From NCBI GenBank assembly GCA_022750155.1, contig JAKIWG010000018.1:1-47366 (forward strand): a stretch of 47,366 nt of DNA. The letters run 5' to 3'. The stretch is from Thermoplasmata archaeon. Its GTDB lineage: Archaea > Thermoplasmatota > Thermoplasmata > Lutacidiplasmatales > UBA184. Each line of letters begins with the position of its first letter. Within the stretch, counting starts at the first letter, position 1. The translations under genes and the position numbers were made by a program. Of the stretch, positions 1,929 to 45,956 are shown one piece after another. The notes beneath the pieces are model-generated. The model was not told where the DNA came from. It was given only the letters and a program-made list of their open reading frames with translations, and made no database searches.

Positions 1929-3308
1929 ATGTCGCACCCGCATTTCCACGGAGTAGGCCGAGGCACTCGATTTCGGCATCGCCCCGGACCCCTGGGGCGG
2001 CGAGACGTGTGGTTGGGCGGTGCGCTCCTGTGCCTGTCGCTCACGAGCCTGCCGGGGTTCGCCGGCCACCCGTCCTCCGCCGCCTTCGGAATCTCCCTAT
2101 CCGAAACCCCCCAAAGGGGCCCGGCGCCCCTCTTGGTACAGTTTTCCGCGCAACTCTTCCCGAATTCCACCTCCGCCACATTCACTTGGGTATTCGGAGA
2201 CGGAGGGTCCTTCCAAGAGACCCGTACCGGATTCTCGACTCCCGCGCACGAGTACATCTCGCCCGGGACGTACCTCGCCAAGGTGACGGCAGATTCCGCG
2301 GCGGGAGCGGTCAATGCATCCGTGGTGGTCACCGTCGGGCAGGCCAACCTGACGGTGTCGATCCTCGAAACACCCGCCTCCGGAACCGCGCCCCTTACTG
2401 TGCAGTTTGGCGCCCACGCCTCCGGTGGGTCGGGCACCCTTACCGCGCTGTTGTGGAGCTTTGGAGACGGGGGGGACGGAAGCGGCTCGAACGTGACGTA
2501 TACGTTCCTCCACCCGGGCCGGTTCGTGGTCAGCCTCAACGCCACGGACGAGGACGGCGCCCAATCTCACGCCAACTCGGTCGTGGACGTCCTGGCGTCT
2601 GACCCCTCCCAATCGAGCCATTCCCAGACCTCGGCGGGAGGGGAATCCGGATGGACCGTCCCGTTCGCGGTGGCCGGTGGAGTGGGTGCATCACTGGTGG
2701 GACTCGGAGCTCTACTGCGGCATCGTCAACGGCGAATCCGGGGGTTCGAAGCCAGGACCGTCGGGATGCCTCCTCCCGGCGCGGTGGTAGTTCCCGAAGC
2801 GGTCGATCTCGGCACGTCCGAGCTCCGAACGGAGACCTCCACCCCCGAGCTCCTCAGCCACGCCGACCTCCCCCCGGTGGTACCGCCGGTGGGGAGCCCC
2901 GCGGCACTCGCCTCTCCGCCGCGTAGGGAGCCTGATCCGACGGAGGGCACGGGCGATGAGGACCCGCTGCGACTATCGGAGCGTGTGCTGGTCCATCTAT
3001 TCTGGTTCGGCACCGACGAGGCGACCGGAGTAGGGCGGATCGAGGCCACGCAGCTTGGCCTCGCCCGTGCGATGGGGGTCCGTCAACACACTGTGAGCAA
3101 GGTCCTCTCGCGTCTCGTCGATGGCGGTGCCCTCGAAACGACCACCCGCCACGTCTCCGGTGCCTCTCGCCGAGTCAAGGTGTATTCTCTCACCCCGAGG
3201 GGGAGGAACCTCGCGGTCGGGCTCGGCGCGCTACGCTCTCCGAGGGTCGCGGGCCCTTCGCGCCTTCCGACCCTACCCGTCGCCGACCCCCAGCCCGGCC
3301 CCCGGTAG
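1929..3308 (+). CDS. Membrane protein with external PKD domains and internal winged-helix domain (candidate one-component receptor-regulator)
   Basis: The frame is open far upstream, but the upstream part lies over the previous gene and does not look like protein. The ATG at 1929 gives 459 residues. Residues about 26-50 form a signal or first membrane helix (DVWLGGALLCLSLTSLPGF). Residues about 53-140 and 140-225 are two PKD domains (FTWVFGDGGSF; LLWSFGDGGDG with TYTFLHPGRFVVSLNA). A membrane helix lies at about 241-264, then basic RHRQRR and a Pro/Glu-rich linker. Residues about 348-440 resemble a MarR-type winged helix (LGLARAMGVRQHTVSKVLSRL, a basic wing, VYSLTPRGRNLAVGL). The inferred topology is PKD domains outside and a DNA-binding domain inside, suggesting a membrane-tethered transcription regulator. 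The alternative is that the winged helix only mediates protein contacts. It lies in tandem with the PKD gene upstream. Confidence 0.85.
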   Translation: MSHPHFHGVGRGTRFRHRPGPLGRRDVWLGGALLCLSLTSLPGFAGHPSSAAFGISLSETPQRGPAPLLVQFSAQLFPNSTSATFTWVFGDGGSFQETRTGFSTPAHEYISPGTYLAKVTADSAAGAVNASVVVTVGQANLTVSILETPASGTAPLTVQFGAHASGGSGTLTALLWSFGDGGDGSGSNVTYTFLHPGRFVVSLNATDEDGAQSHANSVVDVLASDPSQSSHSQTSAGGESGWTVPFAVAGGVGASLVGLGALLRHRQRRIRGFEARTVGMPPPGAVVVPEAVDLGTSELRTETSTPELLSHADLPPVVPPVGSPAALASPPRREPDPTEGTGDEDPLRLSERVLVHLFWFGTDEATGVGRIEATQLGLARAMGVRQHTVSKVLSRLVDGGALETTTRHVSGASRRVKVYSLTPRGRNLAVGLGALRSPRVAGPSRLPTLPVADPQPGPR

Positions 3309-4737: not shown

Positions 4738-5703
4738 ATGCGAATGGTGCCGCCCATGCGAGAACCCGCTCATCGGACACGGGTCGACGCGGGTACGGTT
4801 CGGCCGAATCCTGAACCGTCTGCGCCTCGTCGTCCACGGAGTCGAGGTCCCTGGCCCGTCGTGTCGATCGCCCTGGTCCTACTACTCCTCCTCGCCACCG
4901 CATCGATGCCCGCACGGGGTGCCTCGCCGGGTCCGCCGTACAAGGGCAGCGTAGTGTACCCGTACGGGGCCGGTGTGACCACCGCCTGTGCCAGGAATGT
5001 GAACCGCGAGCCTGTCTCCCCCATCTGGTACCCGTCGACCGGTCGGGGTTTGTTCGCCGATGTCGCCGTGGCGGTCTCGTGCCCCTCGGCGATCGTCCCC
5101 GGCCATGGCGGGGCATCCACGTCCGAGTGGACGGGGAGTTGGTACCTCGCCGTCCCGGTCCACCTGCCGACCCGCGCCATCGCCCACTCCGTCAACGCGA
5201 CTTGGGCCTTCTCCTGGAGCCACTACGACACCTATTCGGTGACGCGGAACTGCAGCGGGGCCCTCGCGACCGGCGCGGTCTACGGGTACCTCGACTGCAA
5301 TGTGGACGCCTCGGCGTCGTTCTACCTGATCAGCTACCTGTACGACGCTACGTCGGCCGTGTACTACGTCTCGCCGGGATTCTTCCCCAGCTTCTACAAC
5401 TTCTCCTTCGCCTACACGGACACGTCCTGCACCCCGGGGTGCAATCGGTCGAGTTACTCGAGCCCCTCCGGGGGCGTGACGAATGCGACGTCGTCGACCA
5501 CGTTCCAGTACGCCTTGAGCAGTCCGAACGCCTCGCACGTCTGGGAGCTGCTGGTGTTCGCAAGCGCCCACACGTTCGCCAGCGTCTCAACGATGTACCA
5601 GAACTTCGTGTCGGTCGTGCCGATGGCGGGCATCGCAAGGGTCGGGTTCGACATGGCCTCGCACGGGAAAGGGGCCGTCCTTTCCGGCATCGTCGTCCGT
5701 TGA
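4738..5703 (+). CDS. Secreted protein of a local three-member family (member A)
   Basis: The protein has 321 residues. An arginine/proline-rich N-terminus of about 40 residues precedes a signal helix (VVSIALVLLLLLATASMPARG), which is long for a signal peptide. The mature region is beta-rich, glycosylatable and aromatic, with several Cys and no membrane anchor. It shares landmarks with the proteins at 7440 and 10678: a PPY motif just after the signal, an IAHSVNATW strand motif (His150), Cys- and Tyr-rich central loops (YGYLDCN; DTSCTPGCN), a late strand (SHVWELLVFASA) and a short beta strand at the very end (GAVLSGIVVR). I do not recognise a named family. It is probably a surface or exported binding protein; no enzyme motif is visible. 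The downstream hydrolase gene is convergent. Confidence 0.8.
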   Translation: MRMVPPMREPAHRTRVDAGTVRPNPEPSAPRRPRSRGPWPVVSIALVLLLLLATASMPARGASPGPPYKGSVVYPYGAGVTTACARNVNREPVSPIWYPSTGRGLFADVAVAVSCPSAIVPGHGGASTSEWTGSWYLAVPVHLPTRAIAHSVNATWAFSWSHYDTYSVTRNCSGALATGAVYGYLDCNVDASASFYLISYLYDATSAVYYVSPGFFPSFYNFSFAYTDTSCTPGCNRSSYSSPSGGVTNATSSTTFQYALSSPNASHVWELLVFASAHTFASVSTMYQNFVSVVPMAGIARVGFDMASHGKGAVLSGIVVR

Positions 5704-5802
5704 CCCCCAGGGGGACCCTTCGCGCTCCCCGAACCCGGGGATGTGGAGTTTCCGATGGTGGGCCGTGCGTCCCGGGGCCCGTACGGGATGGGAGGAGGTC
5801 CG

Positions 5803-7167
5803 TCAGGCGAACCGGACGACGATCGCCCCGCTCGCCGTCACCGACAAGAGCCCCGACCCCGACGAATAGTAGGCTCCGCCCGCGGTTCGGACGGAGGCCA
5901 CCGAACGGGATCCGCACGGCGTGAACGTGACGTTGTACTTGCCGATCGGGAGCGCGGGAGTGTCCCCGGATCGGTAGGCGTGACCCCCTACGGAGACCGA
6001 GCCGCACGACAGGGGCTCGGTCGCGATCACCACCAGGGGCACCGGGGGGCTGTGGGGTTGCGGGTACGGGAAGGTACCCCAATACGTTCCGCCCGGCCTT
6101 AGGCCGAGGAAGTAGGCGAACATGTCCGAGGCGTTCATGACGCGATAGTCGTGGGGTCCGTTCGGTTCGAAGATGTACCGATAGCTGTACTTCGACGGAT
6201 GGAGGGCGGCGAGCGTGGCCAGGGGGAGGGTGCAGCCGGCCGGCTCTCCCAGGGCGGCGACGACGAGGCAGGTGCGGTTCACGAGCGTGTTGTTCTCCTG
6301 CTGATAGGGCCAGAGGCTCAGGTTGTTCGACGAGAGGATGTCCTGGGCCCCGTTCGCGACGTAGAGTCGCACTCCGCTCAGGTTCTCCGGGTGGAATCGG
6401 AGCGAGGAGAGATGGGCAAAGATCCCGCGCGCGTACGCGGAAGAACCGGGGTACTGGCCTCCCGTCGGGAGGAGCATGTACGGGGTGATCCACGAGACCA
6501 GCGAGGATTGGTTCAGGTAGGCATACGTCTCGAAGAAATCGGAGAAGCTGACGATCGCCCCGAGCCCGTGGAAGAGATGCGGGTGGTCGAGACCGATCTC
6601 GAGGGTCCCGATCGAACCCATGCTCTCCCCGAACAGGTCCACCGCCCCGATGTGGCGGATCGACTGCTCATGGGACAGGGCGTCGAGGATGTCCTGCTCC
6701 TGGGGACCCGTGTAGTTCGAGTTGATGTACCAGCCCGACCCGGTCCGGGTGCACGGGTCGATGAGGATCATGCCGTCATTGACCGCCGCCTGGGCCGTGG
6801 TAGGGACCACGTAGTTGGCGATACCTCCCCAGATCGGGACCGTCTCCCCGGTCAGACCGTGGAGCTCGATCGCGAGGGGGTACGTGCGGCTCGAGTTGAA
6901 GGGCGAGGGCAGGGTCTCCTCGTAGCTGAGATTCCACCCGTCCACGGAGCTACTGTAGTAGATCGTGGTCGTGGTGAAGTTGACATTGGCGCTCGGTAGC
7001 GCCGCGGGGGGAACCGGCCGGTGGTCGGCGGCCCGCAAGGCCAGACCGCCGCTCCCCCCGGAGGTTGCGCCGACGAGGGCCGTCGCGGGGAGCAGGAGGA
7101 GTGCGATCGCCAGGACAAAGCCTACGGAAAGGACACGGGCCCTCCGATGGCCATTCTGGTATCCCAT
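5803..7167 (-). CDS. Secreted alpha/beta hydrolase (esterase/peptidase-like) with a C-terminal beta domain
   Basis: The ATG at 7167 gives 454 residues with a signal peptide (VLSVGFVLAIALLLLPATALVGA); a GTG at 7200 would add 11 residues. Residues about 85-370 form an alpha/beta hydrolase fold. LAIELHGLTG fits an oxyanion-loop strand, GESMGS is the nucleophile elbow with catalytic Ser, and HDYRV near the end of the domain supplies the likely catalytic His. The overall pattern resembles secreted esterases of the PHB-depolymerase/feruloyl-esterase or prolyl-oligopeptidase-like type. The last 80 residues form a PEGA-like beta domain (SVSVGGHAYRSGDT, LPIGKYNVTFTP). The gene is divergent from the secreted-family gene at 7440 and shares a 270-bp promoter region with it. 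The substrate cannot be told from sequence. Confidence 0.85.
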   Translation of the reverse strand: MGYQNGHRRARVLSVGFVLAIALLLLPATALVGATSGGSGGLALRAADHRPVPPAALPSANVNFTTTTIYYSSSVDGWNLSYEETLPSPFNSSRTYPLAIELHGLTGETVPIWGGIANYVVPTTAQAAVNDGMILIDPCTRTGSGWYINSNYTGPQEQDILDALSHEQSIRHIGAVDLFGESMGSIGTLEIGLDHPHLFHGLGAIVSFSDFFETYAYLNQSSLVSWITPYMLLPTGGQYPGSSAYARGIFAHLSSLRFHPENLSGVRLYVANGAQDILSSNNLSLWPYQQENNTLVNRTCLVVAALGEPAGCTLPLATLAALHPSKYSYRYIFEPNGPHDYRVMNASDMFAYFLGLRPGGTYWGTFPYPQPHSPPVPLVVIATEPLSCGSVSVGGHAYRSGDTPALPIGKYNVTFTPCGSRSVASVRTAGGAYYSSGSGLLSVTASGAIVVRFA

Positions 7168-7254
7168 CCCCCTTGGGAGTTGCGCGACCAGGACGTTCAC
7201 CCCAGACTCCCCCGCCGGCGGTCACGCGCCGGGCGGTCCGCACACCGCGTCCTG

Positions 7255-7275
7255 GCCGTTTAACCGTTTACCGTC
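7255..7275 (-). promoter_or_regulatory. Putative promoter of the hydrolase gene
   Basis: On the minus strand this reads GGTAAACGGTTAAACGG, two AT-rich TATA-like cores about 95 bases upstream of the ATG at 7167. This implies a 5' leader of roughly 65 nt. It is the only AT-rich patch on this side of the divergent region. Confidence 0.45.
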
Positions 7276-7352
7276 CCATCCGAGCTCATTCGACTCGCGT
7301 TCGAGGCTCGCGGGACCCGGCCGAAACTCGGAATCGATACTGCGGCGCGGCC

Positions 7353-7364
7353 TTGTAAATACAG
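7353..7364 (+). promoter_or_regulatory. TATA-like promoter of secreted-family member B
   Basis: TTGTAAATACAG is the only AT-rich element in the divergent region on this side. Its centre is about 82 nt before the ATG at 7440, giving a predicted leader of about 55 nt. Family member C has nearly the same geometry. Confidence 0.6.
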
Positions 7365-7439
7365 AAAGTGGATTCCCCCGCGTCCGGGGAGTTCGCGGTC
7401 GAGTCAGCGCACCGCTCCCCCCCGGGGGAAGATCGGACC

Positions 7440-8402
7440 ATGGAAATCACGCGATGGCACAGGGCTCGAAGGTTCCGCGCCGGAGACGGACGCGACCTCT
7501 CATGGGTCACCACCGCGCTCGCGGCCGGTGTCGCACTGGTCATGCTACTCGCGCCCAGCGGTTCGGGGGTCCTGGTTCGACCTTCGACGACCCTGACCGC
7601 ACCGTACCTCCACACCTCGAGCGCATCGGGAAAGGGTACCCAGGTCTACGGGTGCGCGAAGGCGACGGCCCCGCGACCGATCTGGAACCATCTGGTCGGC
7701 CGGATCGCCGAGTTCAACAATGCCTCGTCGAAGGCGTGCGGCAAGTCCGTGGGAGTCGGCGGTTCGAGCCAAGGATACGCCCAGACCGACCTCAGCGCAG
7801 CCATCCGGTTCTCGATCTCCTCGCCTGGGAGCCATTCGGTCACCGCCAGCGTGACCCTCAAGATGTCGACTTGGGACACATTCACCCGAGGCGGTTGCCC
7901 GGCCAAGAACGTCCCCTACCCCGCCAAGCCGAACCAGTACGCCTACGGGATCTGCGAAGCGGCCGTCTACCTCAGTTGGTCGACGAGCGCCTACGTCGTC
8001 GACGAGAACAACATCAGCTGGTATGGGAACACGAGCTTCGCCTACTCACAGAACGACTCGTACTACGAAAACTACTCGGACTGCTACAACTTCGGCTCGC
8101 CGGCGTGCACCAACATCTCCGGCACCTTCTGGGGCACGTCCGGGTCGGGGACCTTCAGTACCAACATGGGTGGGTTCGGCTCCTTCACGACGAACGGGAC
8201 GACCTCCCTGACCATGTGGTCCAACGGGACGCAGATGGTCCGGAACCACCACTACGTGCTGATCGTCAGCGTGGGAATGTCCGTCACCGTGTTCGCCAAC
8301 GACTACAACCTGCTCGGGTTCTGGCCGGGGAATGCGGTCGGGACGATCAACATGGGCACGCTCGGGAATGGGATGACGTTCAACTCGGTGACGATCTCCT
8401 AA
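7440..8402 (+). CDS. Secreted protein of the local three-member family (member B)
   Basis: The ATG at 7440 gives 320 residues; the frame extends up to a GTG at 7368, but that codon lies only a few bases past the predicted TATA box. A basic N-terminus is followed by a signal helix (WVTTALAAGVALVMLLAPSGSG). Landmarks shared with members A and C are LTAPY after the signal, GSHSVTASV (His132), Cys-containing loops and the late segment WSNGTQMVRNHHYVLIVSV. That segment closely matches WNGTVMNSTHKYVLQMF of member C. The protein ends in a short strand (MTFNSVTIS). It is rich in Ser, Thr, Asn and Tyr with many N-x-S/T sites, and has no membrane anchor. It is an exported beta-rich protein of unknown role, divergent from the hydrolase gene. 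Confidence 0.85.
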   Translation: MEITRWHRARRFRAGDGRDLSWVTTALAAGVALVMLLAPSGSGVLVRPSTTLTAPYLHTSSASGKGTQVYGCAKATAPRPIWNHLVGRIAEFNNASSKACGKSVGVGGSSQGYAQTDLSAAIRFSISSPGSHSVTASVTLKMSTWDTFTRGGCPAKNVPYPAKPNQYAYGICEAAVYLSWSTSAYVVDENNISWYGNTSFAYSQNDSYYENYSDCYNFGSPACTNISGTFWGTSGSGTFSTNMGGFGSFTTNGTTSLTMWSNGTQMVRNHHYVLIVSVGMSVTVFANDYNLLGFWPGNAVGTINMGTLGNGMTFNSVTIS

Positions 8403-8512
8403 GGTTCCAGGGCTTCGACGGCGAGGGGCGCTTGGACCCGCGGCGGTCGCGCGTCCCCCGCTCGGGTCACCGGGGAGCGGCCGGAATGCCTGCGTCGGCC
8501 GGGCGGCCAGCG

Positions 8513-8522
8513 AAACTTAACC
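8513..8522 (+). promoter_or_regulatory. TATA-like element, leaderless spacing
   Basis: AAACTTAACC, centre about 32 nt before the ATG at 8550, fits a transcript starting close to the start codon. Confidence 0.55.
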
Positions 8523-8549
8523 ATCGACCGGGACGTGGGGGCCCGCCCC

Positions 8550-9551
8550 ATGGACCCGTTCAGCCACCTCCTGCTCGGTTACCTGCTGGGTTTCGGACTC
8601 TGGGGTCCGGCCGGCCTACAGTACGTGGTCGCCGCCGCCGTCGGCGGTGCCCTACCGGACGCGGATATCGCCCTCTTCCCTCTCTCCCAACGGTTTCCGC
8701 TCCTTCGCCATCGGGGGCTTTCCCATTCTCTCGTGGGCGTCACTCTGCTCGCGGCGGTCGGCTGCTTCGCGATCCCGACCGTCATGTCGTGGGGACTCGG
8801 CGCGGGCTTCTCGAGCGGCTCGCGCCTGGTGTTCTTCGTGGCGCTCGAGGTCGGCGGACTCTCCCACGTCTTCCTCGACTCCCTCGACCATTGGTCCGTG
8901 CCGATCTTGGCCCCGTTCTCTCCTACCTCGTACAAGTTCGACGTCGACCGGATCGTGAACGTCGGCTCGATGGCATTCACGGTCCTCGCCTACGCGCTGC
9001 TCATCTACGAGCGCGGCCGGGTTTCGGTCGAGGTCGGGACCGACACCACCCTGGTGCTCCTCGCGGCCGCCCTCGTGTACTTTTCGATCCGGATCTCCGC
9101 CCGTTGGGTGGCCGGAGCCGCACGGAAGCGCGCGGGGTACTCCGCCGTCATCCCGCAAGGCAACCCGCTTCGGTTCGTGCTCTTCCGCGAGGAGGTTACC
9201 GACCGGTCGCGACGCCTTCAGTTCACTCGCTACCACCTTATCCGGGGGCTCGATTCCCACGCCTCATCGGTCGAGATACCCCTCGGGCCGACGCCATCCA
9301 TCCCCGTGCAGGATGCTCCGGAGGCGCTGGCCAGGAGCTACGCGCCGGCTTTCGACGAGAGTTGGGTGCTTGGGGAAACCCATCCGTTCGCCGTCAGTCG
9401 AGCGGCGGCGGGGGGATTCGACGTCTTCTGGTACTCGCTCGAGATGAGCTTCTGGGGCCGCCACGCGGGCGTCGTGGTCCATGTCGACCGCACGACCGGG
9501 ACCGTCCACGCGCGGAGCCGCTGGAGGAATCCAGCCCGTCCGTTCGATTGA
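8550..9551 (+). CDS. YdjM/DUF457-type membrane-bound metal-dependent hydrolase
   Basis: The ATG at 8550 gives 333 residues. The first 150 residues carry the family pattern: His6 in the opening DPFSH, the GALPDADIALFPL acidic motif (Asp37, Asp39), HRGLSHSL (His54, His59) and a later SHVFLDSLDHWSV segment. The conserved His and Asp residues sit at the ends of hydrophobic helices and are thought to bind metal. Four or five membrane helices occupy residues 10-190. The remaining 140 residues are soluble and not typical of the family, which often stops after the membrane part. Members are annotated as membrane-bound hydrolases, but the substrate is generally unknown. Confidence 0.85.
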   Translation: MDPFSHLLLGYLLGFGLWGPAGLQYVVAAAVGGALPDADIALFPLSQRFPLLRHRGLSHSLVGVTLLAAVGCFAIPTVMSWGLGAGFSSGSRLVFFVALEVGGLSHVFLDSLDHWSVPILAPFSPTSYKFDVDRIVNVGSMAFTVLAYALLIYERGRVSVEVGTDTTLVLLAAALVYFSIRISARWVAGAARKRAGYSAVIPQGNPLRFVLFREEVTDRSRRLQFTRYHLIRGLDSHASSVEIPLGPTPSIPVQDAPEALARSYAPAFDESWVLGETHPFAVSRAAAGGFDVFWYSLEMSFWGRHAGVVVHVDRTTGTVHARSRWRNPARPFD

Positions 9552-9717
9552 ACCCGAGGATTCCGGTCGTTCGGTCTGATAGGTTCGAACGTGCCGACCG
9601 CCGGGTTCGTCCGCCCCGCCCACACGAGTACCCGCGGGGCCGCCAGGGCGCATGCCCCCTCGCCCGCGGGGTCGGCGCGGTCGCCAAGCATTTCCTCTCG
9701 GGCGGCTGCCAGAGGGG

Positions 9718-10119
9718 GTGGCGAGCGCGCGGGCGGCACCCGGGTTCTTCGGACCCCTCCTGCTCGCCCGCGACTTTGAACGGACCCTCCGGTTCTACCG
9801 AGACCTCCTCTCGCTCCCCGTCGAAGGCGCCCACCCCTACGCCAAGTGCATCTCCACCCCCTCGACGTTCTCCGTCGTGGACGGGCGGTGGTGGGGCCAG
9901 GTGAACGGCTCGGAGAACCCGATCCAAGGGGAGAGCTCGGTCGCGGACTCCGTGCTGATGATCCAGGTCGACGATGTCCGCCAGGTCTTCGAGCGGTTGA
10001 TGGGGGCGGGGGTGGTGTTTCTCAGCGTCCCCGTGACGAAACCGGAGATGGGCGTCTGGAGCGTGTTCCTGCGGGACCCGGACGGTCGATCCGTAGTGCT
10101 CACTTCACCGCTCGATTGA
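9718..10119 (+). CDS. VOC-family (glyoxalase/bleomycin-resistance fold) protein
   Basis: About 133 residues if translated from the GTG at 9718; the upstream part of the open frame is low-complexity Arg/Gly/Pro and unlikely to be protein. The VOC fold is seen as a first beta-alpha unit (LLLARDFERTLRFYRDLLSLPVE) and a second one (MIQVDDVRQVFERLMGAGV), ending with the typical FLRDPDGRSVVLTSP, where the family often has a metal-binding Glu. That Glu is not evident here (RSVVLT), so a metal-free or binding role is possible. The start is uncertain because the purine run AGAGGGG abuts the GTG directly. Confidence 0.75.
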   Translation: MASARAAPGFFGPLLLARDFERTLRFYRDLLSLPVEGAHPYAKCISTPSTFSVVDGRWWGQVNGSENPIQGESSVADSVLMIQVDDVRQVFERLMGAGVVFLSVPVTKPEMGVWSVFLRDPDGRSVVLTSPLD

Positions 10120-10224
10120 CACGCGACCGCGGTCCGGACACCGGGACGTCGGACCGGGTCACCGCGAGAGCATATGTGGAGCCCCGCGATGCTCCGGAAC
10201 ACCGGAGGGGTGTTTCGATTGGAG

Positions 10225-10581
10225 ATGCCGAAGGCCACCCCGGCGGCCTCGAAGCGGTTCGAAGAGCTGACCCCGACGGGGTCGAACGTCACTTCGAAGA
10301 AGATGTTCGGACAGCCCGCGGCGTTCCTTGGTGGCAACCTGTTCTTCGGCGTGTTCGGCGGGGACCTGTTCGTTCGGCTTTCCGAGGAGGACGCCTCCCA
10401 GGCCCTGAAGAACCCGGGGTTCAAGCCGTTCGAACCGATGGCCGGACGCCCGATGAGAGGCTACGTGGTCCTCCCGCCGACCGTTCTCTCCGACGCGAAG
10501 CAGGCCCGGAGCTGGATCTCCCGGTCGATGAGCTTCGTGGGCAGCCTGCCGCCGAAGAAGGCGAAGTCCAAGGTCGCGTGA
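10225..10581 (+). CDS. TfoX N-terminal-domain protein
   Basis: The ATG at 10225 gives 118 residues; a start at 10174 would add 17 residues of no clear fold. The TfoX-N pattern is visible: an N-terminal helix with RFEELTP, then TSKKMFGQPAAFLGGNLFFGVFGGDLFVRL, where KKMFG and the paired GNLFFGVFG strands are diagnostic. A helix with EEDASQAL, PFEPMAGRPMRGYVVLP, and the closing helix ARSWISRSMSFVGSLP complete it. Stand-alone TfoX-N proteins are common in archaea and bacteria. Despite the competence-related name, their biochemical role is unknown. The gene stands alone between a VOC gene and a convergent secreted-protein gene. Confidence 0.85.
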   Translation: MPKATPAASKRFEELTPTGSNVTSKKMFGQPAAFLGGNLFFGVFGGDLFVRLSEEDASQALKNPGFKPFEPMAGRPMRGYVVLPPTVLSDAKQARSWISRSMSFVGSLPPKKAKSKVA

Positions 10582-10677
10582 CCGGTACAGCCCCGACCTG
10601 ACCGTCGGGGAGGGCCGGTCGAAAAACGGGTCGGGCCGGCCCCCCGGGGGGAGGGTCGGCCCTCGGAAACGGTCCGC

Positions 10678-11541
10678 TCAGGTGATCGAGATCGAGTAGA
10701 GCTGCTCGTCGTTCCCGTGGGTGGCGGAGTTCAGCTGGGCGTTGGCGCTGCCTCCCGAGAGGGTCGCCCCCGAGACGAGCATCTCCACGCTCGCTCCTCC
10801 GAGGATGAACATCTGCAGGACGTACTTGTGGGTCGAGTTCATGACCGTCCCGTTCCAGTACCAGGCCCAGAAGAACGACCCGCCGAAGCTTCCGGTCGCC
10901 TTGCCGGACGTCGACGTCGTGCAGTTGGTGTACCGGCAGCTGGTGTAGCTCGAAGAGTAGGCGAAGTTTCCGGGCCACGCGCTCGAGGCGACGTGCTTGT
11001 GCGTGGTCTTGTCGAGCAGGAACGCGTAGCCGTAGACGAACGTCTTCGCGAACTGCGTGCAGCCCGAATAGAGAACCCCCGAGCTGCCCGAGCAGGTCCC
11101 CGCGGTCAGATTCTCGCTACCGACCGCGACCGTGTCCCAGAGGACCGTGATGGTGTGGGCGCCGGTCGTGGTGACCTTGATCGGGAGTGCGACCTCGAAC
11201 TTCCCCTCGGACAGGGCGCTGTTGTTCGTGTAGCTCGTGCACCAGCTCGTGGTGGCGTTGTCGCTGAACGCCCCGATCCCGGTGGTCTTGTTGAACGAGG
11301 AGGCCTGGACCCGCGTGAACGTCCCACAACCGGCCGTGCTGCTCGGGTTCGTCAGGGTCACCGTCGCCTTCTTGTACGGGGCCTTCAGGGTGACTGCGGC
11401 GGTCGGCCCGGCGAGCGCGGCCGGGGCGAGGATGAGCAGCACCGCGAAGGAGGCCATCGCGGCGGCCGTTCCTCCGGCGATTACGGTCCTCGGTCGGGAT
11501 ACTCTGTGCGTCCGCGGGTGACGGTCGTCCGTTGGTTCCAT
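10678..11541 (-). CDS. Secreted protein of the local three-member family (member C)
   Basis: The protein has 287 residues and starts at the ATG at 11541, preceded by a purine-rich GGAAGAGAGAG ribosome-binding region. The signal helix is TAAAMASFAVLLILAPAALAG. Family landmarks are LKAPYKK right after cleavage, GAHTITVLWDT (His129), a Cys-rich middle (GTCSGSSGVLYSGC), YGYAFLLD, WNGTVMNSTHKYVLQMFIL and a terminal strand EQLYSISIT. It is the shortest of the three and lacks the long insert present in B. There is no membrane anchor and no catalytic motif. It is an exported beta-rich protein of unknown function, transcribed towards the TfoX-N gene. Confidence 0.85.
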   Translation of the reverse strand: MEPTDDRHPRTHRVSRPRTVIAGGTAAAMASFAVLLILAPAALAGPTAAVTLKAPYKKATVTLTNPSSTAGCGTFTRVQASSFNKTTGIGAFSDNATTSWCTSYTNNSALSEGKFEVALPIKVTTTGAHTITVLWDTVAVGSENLTAGTCSGSSGVLYSGCTQFAKTFVYGYAFLLDKTTHKHVASSAWPGNFAYSSSYTSCRYTNCTTSTSGKATGSFGGSFFWAWYWNGTVMNSTHKYVLQMFILGGASVEMLVSGATLSGGSANAQLNSATHGNDEQLYSISIT

Positions 11542-11619: not shown

Positions 11620-11629
11620 GTATTTATCC
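11620..11629 (-). promoter_or_regulatory. TATA-like promoter of secreted-family member C
   Basis: On the minus strand AGGATAAATA, centred about 83 nt before the ATG at 11541. It predicts a leader of about 55 nt, almost identical to family member B. Confidence 0.6.
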
Positions 11630-13328: not shown

Positions 13329-16300
13329 CTACGAGAGGTCCGCCTCGATCGTGCCGCCTCCGCCGAGGGTCAGCGTGGCCGTCCTGGAGGTCGACGAGAC
13401 GATCGACAAGCCGCCATCCGCGCTCCAGGAACTGAGCGCCGCCGGAGCGGTGAGCGTCACCGTGTAGGTCCCCGGGCGCAGCCAGACCGTGTCACCCGAG
13501 TGCAGGACCATCCCGAGGACGGCCAGGCTCCCGTGCGCCGGTGCCGGACCGACGGGGTTCCAGATCACGAAGCTCAGCGGCACCAGCGTCGGCACGAAGA
13601 TCGCCACGAGGTTGCCCGTTCCGCTCGCGAGGGTGATCACCGTCGTCGCGCTCCCGGAAGGACCCGTCAGCGAGGCGGACCCGCTCGCGCCCCAACCGGC
13701 GAACATCCATCCCTTCGCGGGGTTGGCCATGACGACGACCTGACCGGAAGTGATCCGCTTCAGACTCGTCCCGCCTCCGTAGGTCGAACCCTCATTGTAC
13801 GTGACCGTCCCGTCCTTGGGTCCGGGGTGAACCCGGATGTTCAGGGTCGAGGTGGTCGACGTCTTCAGGAAGTTCGCGGTCACCGACCCGTTGCCGAAGA
13901 CGCTCGCATCGGTGAGCGCCGTCACGCTCGAGAACGAGATCGCGCTCCCGTTCGTGGACCACCCGGAGAACGCATAGCCCGGGGCGGCCGCCGCGGCCAT
14001 GGCGTAGGTCCCGAGCACGAGGTTCTGGGTCGACCCCGAGGTCACGGCGACGAATCCGGTGGGGCCCTGCGCGTAGATGGTGCCCGACTTGGCGGGGTTC
14101 ACGTGGAAGGTGACCTGGGCCCCCGACGTGAAGAGGACCTCCAGGATCGCGGTCCCGTTCTCCAGGTTGGCGAGCGTCTGGACCGAGTTGTTCGAGATGA
14201 TCAGCGGCTGGCCGTACAGTATCTGCCAGCTCACCACCCCCGGCCCGGGGGTGATGATGACGGGGTAGGTCCCCGCACGCACCGTGAGCGTGCCGAAGTT
14301 GAACCCGAACGGGCTCGTGCTCGTGACCGACAGCTTCCCGAACGTGGCGGTGCCGACGCCGATCGCGTACAGGTCGACCGTCCCGTTGGTGGTCGTCGGG
14401 GTGTACCAGGCGCCCAGCGTGGCGCTGGAGGTCGCCCCGGTCACGATCAGCTGGGTGTACGGGAACTGGGCCGCGGGCACCGAGACCCCTCCGCCGAAAC
14501 TCCAGTACGAGAAGTTCCAACCGGGCTTCGGGTACGCCTGGATCGAGTAGATCCCCGGCGGGAGCGAGAAGCTCTGGCCGTTCGTCAGCGTCGCCAGGGC
14601 AGCGTCGCTACCCGTCCACAGGAAGTTGGGGTCGAGACCGATCGTCCCCTGTCCGATATCCCGGAACGTGACGGAGGTCAGTTTCGGGTGGGCGGTGAAC
14701 ACCGCCCTCAGGGACCCGGAGCCGGTCAGATGCAGGGTGGTGTAGGGGCTGGTCCCGATGTCCACCGACGCTCCGCCGGTGGCGGTCCAGTGGCTGAACC
14801 CCATGCCGCTCGCAGGGATCGCGTGCACCGAGTAGGTCCCCCGCAGGAGACCGGAGACGCTCGTCGGGCTCGAATCGGCGTGCGACAGGAACATCACCGA
14901 TCCGCCTCCCGAGGACGAGGGTCCGATGGACAGCGTCGAGGCGAGCGCGCCGCAGCTCGGCACCGAGAAGTTCGTCGGCGGGAAGAACCCGCCCCCAAAG
15001 CTCAGCGTCTGCAGGTTGGGGTTGAACTGGTGCCACTTTCCGAAGTCGGAGGCGACCCCGGTGTAGTCTACGGCCCCGAACTCGAAGACGTGGGAGCCGC
15101 AGTAGTAGCTGTAGTACGGGTAGCTGCACCACGCGGAGCCCTCGATCCCCGAGCAGACCCCGTTGCTCGTCTGGTCGACGAGGGGCATGCCGCCCTCGGG
15201 CTGGGTGAACGCCACCTGGACCGGGCGATAGGTGGTCGCCGCGTTGAAGAACGTCGGAGTCGATATCTTCCACGGGGTCAGGCTGTCGTTCGCCCAGGAG
15301 CCGGGGTCGTACGACGGGCACGGCGCGCCAGGGTCGGTCGGCGTCGATACCGGCCCGCCGGAGCAGCCGCCATAGCTGTTGTTCGAGGGGAAGGTCGGGT
15401 TGCCGGCGTGGCCCGTTTCGAAAGCGAACGAGACCGGGTATTCGCCGCCGGGGGTCCACTGCATGGAGGCTTCCGTGTTGCTCTGCGAGTAGGACGGATT
15501 GATCGGGTAGCCTTGGGCGGTGTTGAACATCGTCAGGTTCGAAGCCTGTCCGCTGGTCTTGTCGATGATGGACAGCCGCTCCCCGATGGTGCTCGTCGCG
15601 TATCCGGTCATCTTCACCACGATGTGGTCGCCCTGGGTCATGTTCAGGTACGAGGGGCCCGGGACGCCGTTGATGTAGAGCGGCTCGTAGAAGCAGGGGT
15701 TCTCGAAGCCGGTCGCGGCCTCGATCTGCCACGCCACCGCCGCCCCGATCCACTTGCCGTTTACCGTCCAGTTAGGATACTGGGGGCCAGGGTTGGTGAA
15801 CAGCTGGTCGGGGTAGAACTGGAGCTCCAGGAAGCACTGGTCCATCCAGCCGAACGGGTCGGTCATCGTCATGCCGAACCAGATCGCCGAATAGAGGTCG
15901 GATTGGTTGTGGGTCGCGTCGCGGTCGGTGGGGAGCGTCACGTTCCACGTGACATTCCCGCCGCTTCCTGGAAGGTCGGACTGGAACTGGATGCCGGGCT
16001 CGTCGTGCCCGTAGCATCCGGAGGCGTAGGCGCCTTGGGAGCTCGAGCCCACGTAGTTCTCGAACTGGGGCCAGAGACCCGCACAGAAGCGGTTGTTCCA
16101 GTTGCTCGCGGAGGAACCACCGGAGCCGCCGCCCCCGCCGCCCCATCCTTGGGATGAGGGCCGGAGGACTTCGGACCCCGGCGGGATTCCTGAGGGGCCC
16201 CACGACGCAGGGTGAGGTCCCTTGATCTGGAAGTGGCCGAGCGAGACATGGCTGGGAGGATGCACCATTTGCAACTGTTGCTGGTGCGACGGAAGCGGGT

Positions 16301-16490
16301 GGAATGGCGCCACCGTGGGGCCACTCGAGGCCGCGGGTGCGGGAACTCCCGAGGGGGCTCCCGAGGTAGTGTGGGCGATGTTGAGCCCGTGGGATGACAG
16401 CGCGGGGATCACCCCGACCAGCATCATCGCCGCCAAGCCGAACATCACGACGGAAACCATGCCCCTCTGACTCGCTCGAAACTTCTTCAT
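13329..16490 (-). CDS. Very large secreted protein with about six C-terminal B-type repeats
   Basis: The protein has 1053 residues from the ATG at 16490; a GTG at 16499 would add three residues and sits too close to the GGAG ribosome-binding motif. A signal peptide (GMVSVVMFGLAAMMLVGVIPA) is followed by a Pro/Ser/His/Gly-rich linker to about residue 125, including a glycine run. Residues about 130-540 form a Trp- and Cys-rich globular region (NRFCAGLWPQFENYVG), perhaps carbohydrate-binding or protease-like but not recognised. From about 550 to the end come roughly six 75-90-residue repeats with a GxxFxxW core (GMGFSHWTATGG, GWNFSYWSFGGG, GYAFSGWSTNGS, GWMFAGWGASGS) and a closing strand. They resemble the divergent InlB B-repeat. 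There is no C-terminal anchor, so it is probably released or attached non-covalently. Confidence 0.85.
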   Translation of the reverse strand: MKKFRASQRGMVSVVMFGLAAMMLVGVIPALSSHGLNIAHTTSGAPSGVPAPAASSGPTVAPFHPLPSHQQQLQMVHPPSHVSLGHFQIKGPHPASWGPSGIPPGSEVLRPSSQGWGGGGGGSGGSSASNWNNRFCAGLWPQFENYVGSSSQGAYASGCYGHDEPGIQFQSDLPGSGGNVTWNVTLPTDRDATHNQSDLYSAIWFGMTMTDPFGWMDQCFLELQFYPDQLFTNPGPQYPNWTVNGKWIGAAVAWQIEAATGFENPCFYEPLYINGVPGPSYLNMTQGDHIVVKMTGYATSTIGERLSIIDKTSGQASNLTMFNTAQGYPINPSYSQSNTEASMQWTPGGEYPVSFAFETGHAGNPTFPSNNSYGGCSGGPVSTPTDPGAPCPSYDPGSWANDSLTPWKISTPTFFNAATTYRPVQVAFTQPEGGMPLVDQTSNGVCSGIEGSAWCSYPYYSYYCGSHVFEFGAVDYTGVASDFGKWHQFNPNLQTLSFGGGFFPPTNFSVPSCGALASTLSIGPSSSGGGSVMFLSHADSSPTSVSGLLRGTYSVHAIPASGMGFSHWTATGGASVDIGTSPYTTLHLTGSGSLRAVFTAHPKLTSVTFRDIGQGTIGLDPNFLWTGSDAALATLTNGQSFSLPPGIYSIQAYPKPGWNFSYWSFGGGVSVPAAQFPYTQLIVTGATSSATLGAWYTPTTTNGTVDLYAIGVGTATFGKLSVTSTSPFGFNFGTLTVRAGTYPVIITPGPGVVSWQILYGQPLIISNNSVQTLANLENGTAILEVLFTSGAQVTFHVNPAKSGTIYAQGPTGFVAVTSGSTQNLVLGTYAMAAAAAPGYAFSGWSTNGSAISFSSVTALTDASVFGNGSVTANFLKTSTTSTLNIRVHPGPKDGTVTYNEGSTYGGGTSLKRITSGQVVVMANPAKGWMFAGWGASGSASLTGPSGSATTVITLASGTGNLVAIFVPTLVPLSFVIWNPVGPAPAHGSLAVLGMVLHSGDTVWLRPGTYTVTLTAPAALSSWSADGGLSIVSSTSRTATLTLGGGGTIEADLS

Positions 16491-44453: not shown

Positions 44454-44463
44454 GGGTTTATGC
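44454..44463 (+). promoter_or_regulatory. Promoter of thyX
   Basis: GGGTTTATGC, centre 29 nt before the ATG at 44487. The ATG at 44460 lies inside this element and is therefore not the likely start. Confidence 0.6.
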
Positions 44464-44486
44464 CCGACCACGATTCCCCCGGACCG

Positions 44487-45956
44487 ATGGCCGAGGAATC
44501 CTCCCCGATGACCCGGCCGTCCGTGCCCGCCGCCGACCGGGAGATCGGGGTGAAACACCCGGTCCTCTCCCACGGCTACGTCGTGCTCGTCGACTACATG
44601 GGCAACGACGCGGCGATCGTCCAGGCGGCGAGGGTTTCCTACGGGCAGGGGACGAAGAGCGTCCGGGACGACCGGGGGCTGGTTCGCTACCTCATGCGCC
44701 ATCGCCATACGACGCCCTTCGAGATGGTCGAGTTCAAGTTCCTCGTCCGACTTCCCATCTACGTCGCCCGTCAGTGGATCCGCCATCGGACCGCGTGCCT
44801 CGCGGAGGGAACGCGCGTCCACCTCGTGCCCCCGTCGCGGGGACGACCCGAAGGGGGGGCTCACCCAGGGGTCTCGATCGAGGATCTCTGGAGGAGCGGT
44901 CGAGAGGCTCGCGGTCCCTCCGCGGGGACCGGGTCTTCGACCGAGAGCGTCCGACTCCGGCACCTCGACGAGACCGCCCGCCGGTTCGATGGCACCCCGC
45001 TCGTCGAAGCCTATCGGAACGGTGTGAAACCGGTGGTGCGGATGGTACTCGCCGACGGAAAGTCCATCGAGTGCACCCCGGAGCACCGGTTCCTGTTCGG
45101 CGATGGCTGGCATTCGCTTCGCGAGGGCGCGGGCGTGGCGCTCGAGGGAGCGACCGTTCACTGGCGGTCCGAGAGCTTGCCGATCGCCGTCAACGGCGTC
45201 GACGAGCCGGACCCGGCAGACCCCGCGGCGGCGATCGTCCGACCCCGGTTCGTACCCATCGACCGTTTCGAGTACGTCGGGCCCAAAATGACCTACGACC
45301 TCGAGGTGGGGGGGCCGGACCACAACTTCGTGGCGAACGGGATCGTGACCCACAACTCGGTCAACGAGTATTCGGCGCGCTACTCGATCGTGCCCGATGA
45401 GTTCGCACTCCCGGAACCCGGGGAGATCCGGACCCAATCCACGCGGAATCGCCAGTCGGGGGACGACCCGGCTCCCGCCCCGGCCGCGCAGCAGTTCCGG
45501 GACGATGTCGAGCGGATCAGCCGGTCCGCTTACGAGGCTTACACCAAGGCGCTCGGGGCCGGGATCGCCCGCGAAACGGCGCGGATCGTGCTGCCCATCG
45601 GCTACTACACCCAATGGTACTGGAAGATCAATCTCCAGAACCTGTTCCACTTCCTCTCCCTCCGGCTCGACCCCCACGCCCAAGAGGAGATCCGTCGGTA
45701 CGCGGTCGAGCTCGCGGCCCTCGCGCGCACGGTGGCCCCGGTCGCGATCGAGGCGTTCGAGGAGTTCCAGTTGGAGGGGCTCTCCCTCAGCCGACGCGAG
45801 CAGCGTGCGGTGCGGGAGCTTCTGGGCGGGGCCACACCCTCCGACGCCTGCGCGACCGCCGGGTTGCCGCTCGCGCGGGAGGACGGACGACCCATGACGA
45901 GCGGGGAAGGGGTCGAGTTCCTCGAGAAGCTCGAGCGCCTCCGCGCTTCGTCGTGA
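44487..45956 (+). CDS. thyX: Flavin-dependent thymidylate synthase interrupted by a mini-intein
   Basis: The precursor has 489 residues from the ATG at 44487; a start at 44460 would add nine. The N-extein (residues 1-103) and C-extein (291-489) join to a 302-residue ThyX with the signature RHRTA-SVNEYS, which is RHRX7S once the intein is removed. Other ThyX features are LVDYMGNDAAIVQAARVSY, then TTPFEMVEFKF, RQWIRHR and QFRDDVERISRSAYEAYTKAL, and an FAD-contacting IGYYTQWYWKINLQNLFHFL. It methylates dUMP to dTMP with FADH2 and methylenetetrahydrofolate. Splicing is needed to form the signature. It is divergent from metG. Confidence 0.95.
   Translation: MAEESSPMTRPSVPAADREIGVKHPVLSHGYVVLVDYMGNDAAIVQAARVSYGQGTKSVRDDRGLVRYLMRHRHTTPFEMVEFKFLVRLPIYVARQWIRHRTACLAEGTRVHLVPPSRGRPEGGAHPGVSIEDLWRSGREARGPSAGTGSSTESVRLRHLDETARRFDGTPLVEAYRNGVKPVVRMVLADGKSIECTPEHRFLFGDGWHSLREGAGVALEGATVHWRSESLPIAVNGVDEPDPADPAAAIVRPRFVPIDRFEYVGPKMTYDLEVGGPDHNFVANGIVTHNSVNEYSARYSIVPDEFALPEPGEIRTQSTRNRQSGDDPAPAPAAQQFRDDVERISRSAYEAYTKALGAGIARETARIVLPIGYYTQWYWKINLQNLFHFLSLRLDPHAQEEIRRYAVELAALARTVAPVAIEAFEEFQLEGLSLSRREQRAVRELLGGATPSDACATAGLPLAREDGRPMTSGEGVEFLEKLERLRASS
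44796..45356 (+). other. Mini-intein inside thyX
   Basis: 187 residues (104-290 of the precursor) in frame. Block A is CLAEGTRVHLV, starting with the nucleophile Cys. Block B is GKSIECTPEHRFLF with the TxxH motif, and the end YDLEVGGPDHNFVANG-IVTHN supplies blocks F and G with penultimate His and Asn. The first residue after is Ser. No LAGLIDADG or other homing-endonuclease domain is found, so it is a mini-intein, probably fixed and splicing itself. It sits in the middle of the RHRX7S active-site motif, a conserved insertion point. Confidence 0.9.

What the first reader, a model, noticed from the sequence alone, without database searches (positions are those of the whole stretch)
4738..11541. 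Three diverged members of one secreted protein family that I do not recognise
The genes at 4738 (A), 7440 (B) and 10678 (C) encode exported proteins of 287-321 residues. All have a signal, then a P-x-Y motif (PPYKG, TAPYL, KAPYKK). At residue 129-150 there is an (A/S)H(S/T)(V/I) strand motif: AHSVNATW in A, SHSVTASV in B and AHTITVLW in C. B and C share a late strand pair, WSNGTQMVRNHHYVL and WNGTVMNSTHKYVL, with Tyr and Cys loops in the middle, and all three end in a short beta strand. B and C also have similar promoter geometry. No catalytic motif or anchor is seen. A small local expansion of a secreted family suggests diversification of surface or exported binders.
Basis: partly seen in the sequence, partly recalled or inferred. 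Interest (0 to 1): 0.8.

Follow-up and report, generated by a model that had tools for sequence, protein, structure and literature searches.

The report
Large orphan archaeal secreted-protein family
Three neighbouring genes of a high-GC archaeon belong to an unnamed family of probably exported, cysteine-stapled proteins that runs to about thirty copies in a few related genomes and was hardly found outside one archaeal family; what the proteins bind or build is not known.

Summary
A, B and C are homologous: a profile built without them finds them at E 2e-36, 8e-69 and 1e-62; 0 of 600 shuffled controls score below E 1. They are not a small local expansion. The genome holds at least 31 matches, single or in short clusters. 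A, B and C each pair with their own orthologue on one contig of a sister genome, so they diverged before those species split. No Pfam, NCBIfam, PDB or PADLOC family matches convincingly. Confident matches lay only in one archaeal family. All eight placed genomes with five or more copies fall on one side of a supported branch of a MetG tree. Three cysteine pairs are lost together and glycosylation sequons are twice expectation; B and C are predicted all-beta. B and C share a TATA-like box at -84/-85, seen in a minority of relatives, mostly B's own branch. B and C show ordinary constraint, so no arms race is shown. Most likely: secreted beta-sandwich binders (inferred); coat or matrix proteins are the main rival.

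The parts
4738..5703 (+). Family member A (321 aa): N-terminal hydrophobic segment, PPY motif, Cys-containing mature part; the start could also be the ATG at 4756
   Evidence: found by a profile built without it at E 2.1e-36; orthologue L098:3309-4304
7440..8402 (+). Family member B (320 aa); predicted all-beta mature part
   Evidence: orthologue L098:8419-9456
10678..11541 (-). Family member C (287 aa); predicted all-beta; three inferred disulfides C72-C101, C150-C161, C202-C207
   Evidence: orthologue L098:5128-6066
7356..7361 (+). TAAATA box of B, 84 bases before its ATG
11621..11626 (-). TAAATA box of C, 85 bases before its ATG

Best explanation
A, B and C are three old paralogues of a lineage-restricted family of exported proteins. 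Each is made with an N-terminal export signal, folds outside the cell into a beta-sandwich, is held by up to three disulfides and is probably N-glycosylated. The most likely job is binding: a set of lectin-like or adhesin-like sandwiches, each paralogue holding a different ligand (soil polysaccharide, glycoprotein or neighbour surface). Shown: homology, copy number, clade distribution, cysteine covariation, sequon excess, low charge and, for a minority of members, a shared TATA box position. Predicted: the all-beta nature of B and C. Inferred: export, disulfides, glycosylation, the sandwich topology, and binding as the function.
For: Homology of the three. At least 31 matches in the own genome, equal to the number scored. 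Three cysteine pairs kept or lost together: 109/1/0/3, 89/2/2/20 and 85/0/1/27 (both / first only / second only / neither) of 113. N-x-S/T sequons 702 against 323 expected by shuffling. D+E+K+R 9.0% against 23.7% in cytosol-like window proteins and 11.8% in other exported or membrane ones; F+W+Y 12.2% against 7.8% and 10.4%. Models all-beta: B mean pLDDT 68.1, pTM 0.67; C 75.6, 0.69. The weak Foldseek matches are beta-rich proteins of many kinds, among them carbohydrate-binding modules, lectins and phage tail proteins. Near-invariant G88 (112 of 113) and D177 (108 of 113) but no conserved polar triad.
Against: No match reaches a TM-score that fixes the fold: the best of the 50 rows shown per search is 0.39 by target length; virus capsids and pore-forming toxins stand in the same lists, one capsid (7vrp_J) at E 8.2e-4, level with the best carbohydrate-binding module. 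The two models share all their alignment rows and are not independent. Positions in predicted strands vary slightly more than loop positions (entropy 2.84 against 2.51), not the classic picture of variable binding loops on a fixed frame. B and C are under ordinary constraint. The sequon excess is not corrected for shared ancestry. 92 of 113 members have no exact TAAATA near the start. No ligand, expression or localisation data exist.
Confidence: 0.45

Rival explanations
1. Coat or matrix proteins: the paralogues assemble, or decorate an S-layer or extracellular matrix, and differ by growth condition rather than by ligand.
For: Low charge, Ser/Thr/Asn/Gly-rich, sequon-rich mature parts; TATA-like boxes in a subset; B and C under ordinary constraint; no catalytic motif recognised.
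Against: About thirty strongly diverged copies would be unusual for a coat subunit; no anchor or assembly domain recognised; 55 of 78 genomes of the genus have no match at E up to 1e-3.
Confidence: 0.3
2. Secreted antagonism or predation factors, working like the Bdellovibrio secreted protein Bd1399.
For: Bd1399 (8okh) is the top PDB match of both models, E 4.4e-6 for C and 1.2e-4 for B. It is a signal-peptide, elongated beta-sandwich protein with two conserved disulfides and is linked to predation (passages of PMC10792529).
Against: TM-scores only 0.14-0.29; no match to PF14273 (DUF4360) in the own genome at E up to 1; no recurrent neighbour gene that I would take for an immunity partner (clusters not annotated, judged by eye).
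Confidence: 0.1
3. Secreted inhibitors or scaffolds for the acid peptidases that such archaea export, or pore formers.
For: Lutacidiplasmatales, a possible relative, are reported to have extracellular S53, thermopsin and A4 peptidases (PMC9287336, passages); alpha-hemolysin-type folds appear among the weak matches of C.
Against: No Pfam match at E up to 5 for A, B and C; among 22 members only three single stray hits, none to an inhibitor or toxin family.
Confidence: 0.08

Closest known systems
Bd1399 / DUF4360 (PF14273), Bdellovibrio secreted protein, PDB 8okh
   Same: All-beta, described as an elongated beta-sandwich with a putative signal peptide and conserved disulfides, one near the N-terminus; top Foldseek PDB hit of both models.
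   Different: No sequence match in the own genome at E up to 1; TM-score at most 0.29; three inferred cysteine pairs instead of two disulfides; mature part of roughly 240-270 residues against 166 in the crystal chain.
Carbohydrate-binding modules and lectins (TmCBM61, TmCBM27, legume and Emp47-type lectins)
   Same: All-beta; recurrent among the weak Foldseek matches.
   Different: No sequence match; TM-scores at most 0.31 in the rows shown; no sugar-binding site recognised.
Thermopsin and A4 acid peptidases of Thermoplasmatota
   Same: Reported as extracellular proteins of acid-soil Thermoplasmatota (PMC9287336, passages).
   Different: No Pfam match; no conserved set of catalytic residues seen.

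Membership tests
DUF4360 (PF14273) | Profile match over the curated cut-off (27 bits) | tested here: not met
   0 matches in the own genome at E up to 1; A, B and C no Pfam hit at E up to 5
DUF4360 (PF14273) | Elongated beta-sandwich with conserved disulfides | tested here: inconclusive
   Top PDB hit 8okh for both models, but TM-score at most 0.29
Carbohydrate-binding modules / lectins | Sequence profile match in Pfam | tested here: not met
Carbohydrate-binding modules / lectins | Jelly-roll fold | tested here: inconclusive
   All-beta models; weak matches only
Carbohydrate-binding modules / lectins | Sugar binding | not testable with these tools
   needs a binding assay
Thermopsin / A4 peptidases | Pfam match and catalytic residues | tested here: not met
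   A, B and C no Pfam hit at E up to 5; 22 members, no such hit at E up to 0.5; the most conserved columns are mainly Cys, Gly, Pro, aromatic and one Asp

The most novel reading that the evidence does not exclude
A new fold family of archaeal surface binders: an ancient repertoire of about thirty paralogues per genome, some of them driven by one promoter plan with a leader of roughly 60 bases, that these archaea use as a recognition set towards polymers or neighbouring cells.
Probability: 0.2. Interest if true: 0.75.

Novelty: new variant of a known kind. Interest (0 to 1): 0.5.

Why it matters
Over one percent of the genes of some uncultivated archaea (my estimate: 31 in 2.13 Mb at about one gene per kilobase) goes into a family that the libraries searched here do not contain. 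The orthologue sets, cysteine pairs and models make its fold and ligands directly testable.

Tried and rejected
Recent tandem origin of A, B and C: rejected by the tree. Viral or defence origin: no relative found in viral contigs (asked only with query A2 of the B subfamily); PADLOC and PHROGs gave only weak hits, the best a CARF model at E 0.026 for B and a phage tail family at E 0.07 for C. Positive selection: not shown for B and C. A recurrent neighbour as partner: the largest cluster holds 32 of 328 neighbour genes and mixes PKD, Kelch-like and phosphoesterase-like exported proteins joined by single linkage; its enrichment over the genome was not measured. PKD-TM-HTH regulators: 6 matches in the own genome, two within about 2 kb of a member; by my own rough estimate not significant.

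The organism's order was not determined. Lutacidiplasmatales is a guess from GC content and from my recollection that the nearest named genome comes from soil.

Full report
WHAT IS THERE. A (4738-5703, +), B (7440-8402, +) and C (10678-11541, minus strand) are open reading frames of 321, 320 and 287 residues. BLASTP links B-C (E 4e-5) and A-C (2e-4), not A-B (0.18). Searching the own genome with each one alone links all three to other paralogues: C finds 14 places at E 1.1e-6 or better, itself included; B finds 8 at 2.7e-33 or better, itself included; A finds one other at 2.6e-10 and a B-type one at 5e-6. A profile built from 19 relatives without A, B and C gives them E 2.1e-36, 7.8e-69 and 1.2e-62; 0 of 600 shuffled copies scored below E 1 (best 1.3).

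SIZE AND SPREAD. With profile A1 (22 sequences) the own genome (2.13 Mb, 93.7% complete) has 30 matches: 25 at E below 1e-35, three weaker, and two short pieces at contig ends, one of them at E 0.024. With profile A3 (87 sequences) it has 31, which equals the number of candidates scored, so the figure is a lower bound. In the genus 23 of 78 genomes (own included) match at E up to 1e-3. Counts: own 31, G065 31 (also at the cap), G090 29, G074 27 (both of 31 scored candidates), G077 12, G081 8, G061 7, G075 5, G025 5, and 14 others with 1-4; one of these, G100, rests on a single match at 8.8e-4. In a sample of the phylum 4 of 389 genomes match: own, G061 of the same genus, G382 of the same family but another genus, and G037 of the same order with a weak N-terminal match (2e-4, 56 positions) that I do not count; that search scored only 6 candidates per genome. 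An earlier search of 60 relatives found 0 of 24 outside the genus. A scan of viral contigs with A2 found none; a scan of named genomes with A2 found two loci, both in one genome.

EVOLUTION. 116 distinct matches were collected from the fetched loci; three under 200 residues were dropped, leaving 113 for the tree. In that tree (quick method, SH-aLRT only, 46 of 110 inner branches under 80) A, B and C each pair with one G065 gene on contig C7, with support 100, 100 and 96 and identities of 49, 63 and 70%. C7 carries several of the same neighbours, partly rearranged. So the three were separate before the two species split, and the window cluster is kept, not recent. Other members are close tandem copies, for example three in a row on contig C9. 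Labels of G000 and G065 are interleaved (25 and 27 changes against shuffled means of 25.1 and 27.9), as expected if most copies predate the split. On a MetG tree of 67 genomes all 8 placed genomes with five or more copies fall on one side of a branch with SH-aLRT 98, together 17 genomes of which 7 have none; the other 50 have at most 3 (the root is at the midpoint, for drawing only). MetG was found in 69 of 78 genomes; G006 and G035 were left out for short matches, and G090 (29 copies) lacked it. Between G000 and G065, pN/pS (uncorrected proportions, pS 0.41-0.60) is 0.61 for A, 0.40 for B and 0.37 for C; the other 18 reciprocal pairs range from 0.13 to 0.98, the last a poorly aligned repeat protein and the next highest 0.56, so A is among the least constrained.

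ANATOMY. In 113 rows, six cysteine columns form three pairs that are kept or lost together: C72-C101 (109 both, 1 single, 3 neither), C150-C161 (89, 4, 20) and C202-C207 (85, 1, 27). These are inferred disulfides; columns 150/161 and 202/207 also go together across pairs, because a set of divergent rows lacks both. Sequons N-x-S/T number 702 against 323 by shuffling; this does not correct for shared ancestry. Charged residues are 9.0%, against 23.7% in cytosol-like and 11.8% in other exported or membrane window proteins as sorted by hydropathy. Most conserved besides Cys are G88, D177, P55, Y/F56 and Y240. No Pfam family at E up to 5 and no NCBIfam family below E 0.1 for A, B and C; 0 PDB sequences at E up to 5 with profile A1; three single-member stray Pfam hits among 22 members, the best at E 0.021.

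FOLD. AlphaFold2 with only seven sequences gives all-beta models: B pLDDT 68.1, pTM 0.67; C 75.6, 0.69. Both used the same seven rows, so they are not independent. Foldseek against PDB ranks Bd1399 (8okh) first for both, E 1.2e-4 (B) and 4.4e-6 (C), but with TM-scores of 0.14-0.29 and rmsd over 11 A. In the 50 rows shown per search, carbohydrate-binding modules, lectins, ephrin receptors, virus capsids and pore-forming toxins follow; for C one capsid and TmCBM61 stand level at E 8.2e-4. Viral models matched include phage tail and fibre proteins and capsids, again weakly. I read this as 'all-beta, probably a sandwich, relation open'. Bd1399 is described as a secreted elongated beta-sandwich with two conserved disulfides (PMC10792529, passages only).

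PROMOTERS. TAAATA lies 84 bases before the start of B and 85 before C. Of 113 members, 21 have TAAATA within 200 bases upstream of the homology-defined start (or 60 bases into it), 15 of these at -81 to -88, all in G000 or G065; 92 have none. Twelve of the 15 lie in B's own 19-row branch of the tree, so shared ancestry explains much of the agreement; C, its orthologue and L102 are the other three, and in L002 and L095 the box is 69 bases before the profile start, which is 84 before their first ATG. By a crude gene caller of mine, 19 of 61 family genes against 4 of 233 other genes carry TAAATA (Fisher p 4e-11, not corrected for relatedness). Called starts are rough and genes with under 200 bases upstream were skipped. 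So the shared geometry is real for B, C and some kin, not for the whole family.

INTERPRETATION. The proteins look exported, disulfide-stapled and all-beta, with no catalytic site recognised. A retained set of diverged paralogues fits a ligand-binding repertoire best; a coat or matrix is the main alternative.

LITERATURE. Searches (listings only) and passages of PMC9287336 and PMC10792529 showed no description of this family. [quoted passage not shown] whether this genome belongs to that order I did not establish. If it does, this family would be an exception to that trend.

CHANGED ON CHECKING. The promoter claim was narrowed (12 of 15 boxes in one branch), 'mostly beta-sandwiches' for the Foldseek lists was withdrawn, and the capsid match level with TmCBM61 was added.

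Noticed in passing
44460-45956 (+): Thymidylate synthase ThyX (Thy1) interrupted by an intein-like splicing domain: PF02511 E 7e-52 in two stretches, PF14890 E 1.4e-7 but below its curated cut-off.
   Followed up: partly
2007-3305 (+): Protein with two PKD domains, a hydrophobic segment and a winged-helix (HTH_Crp/MarR-like, below cut-off) end, apparently a one-component transmembrane regulator; similar genes lie near family members in L140, L099 and L108, but only 6 matches occur in the own genome and the association is not significant by my rough estimate.
   Followed up: partly
13332-16460 (-): 1043-residue exported-looking protein with a divergent InlB B-repeat match and 79% identity to its sister-genome orthologue over 622 residues.
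   Followed up: no
L138:5129-6571, L139:1721-3064, L103:8781-10136, L114:1891-4500: Proteins with an ENHAxDN-type motif (ENRAFDN in L103), recalled as typical of the phosphoesterase (PF04185) family and not tested here, next to family members in three genomes.
   Followed up: no
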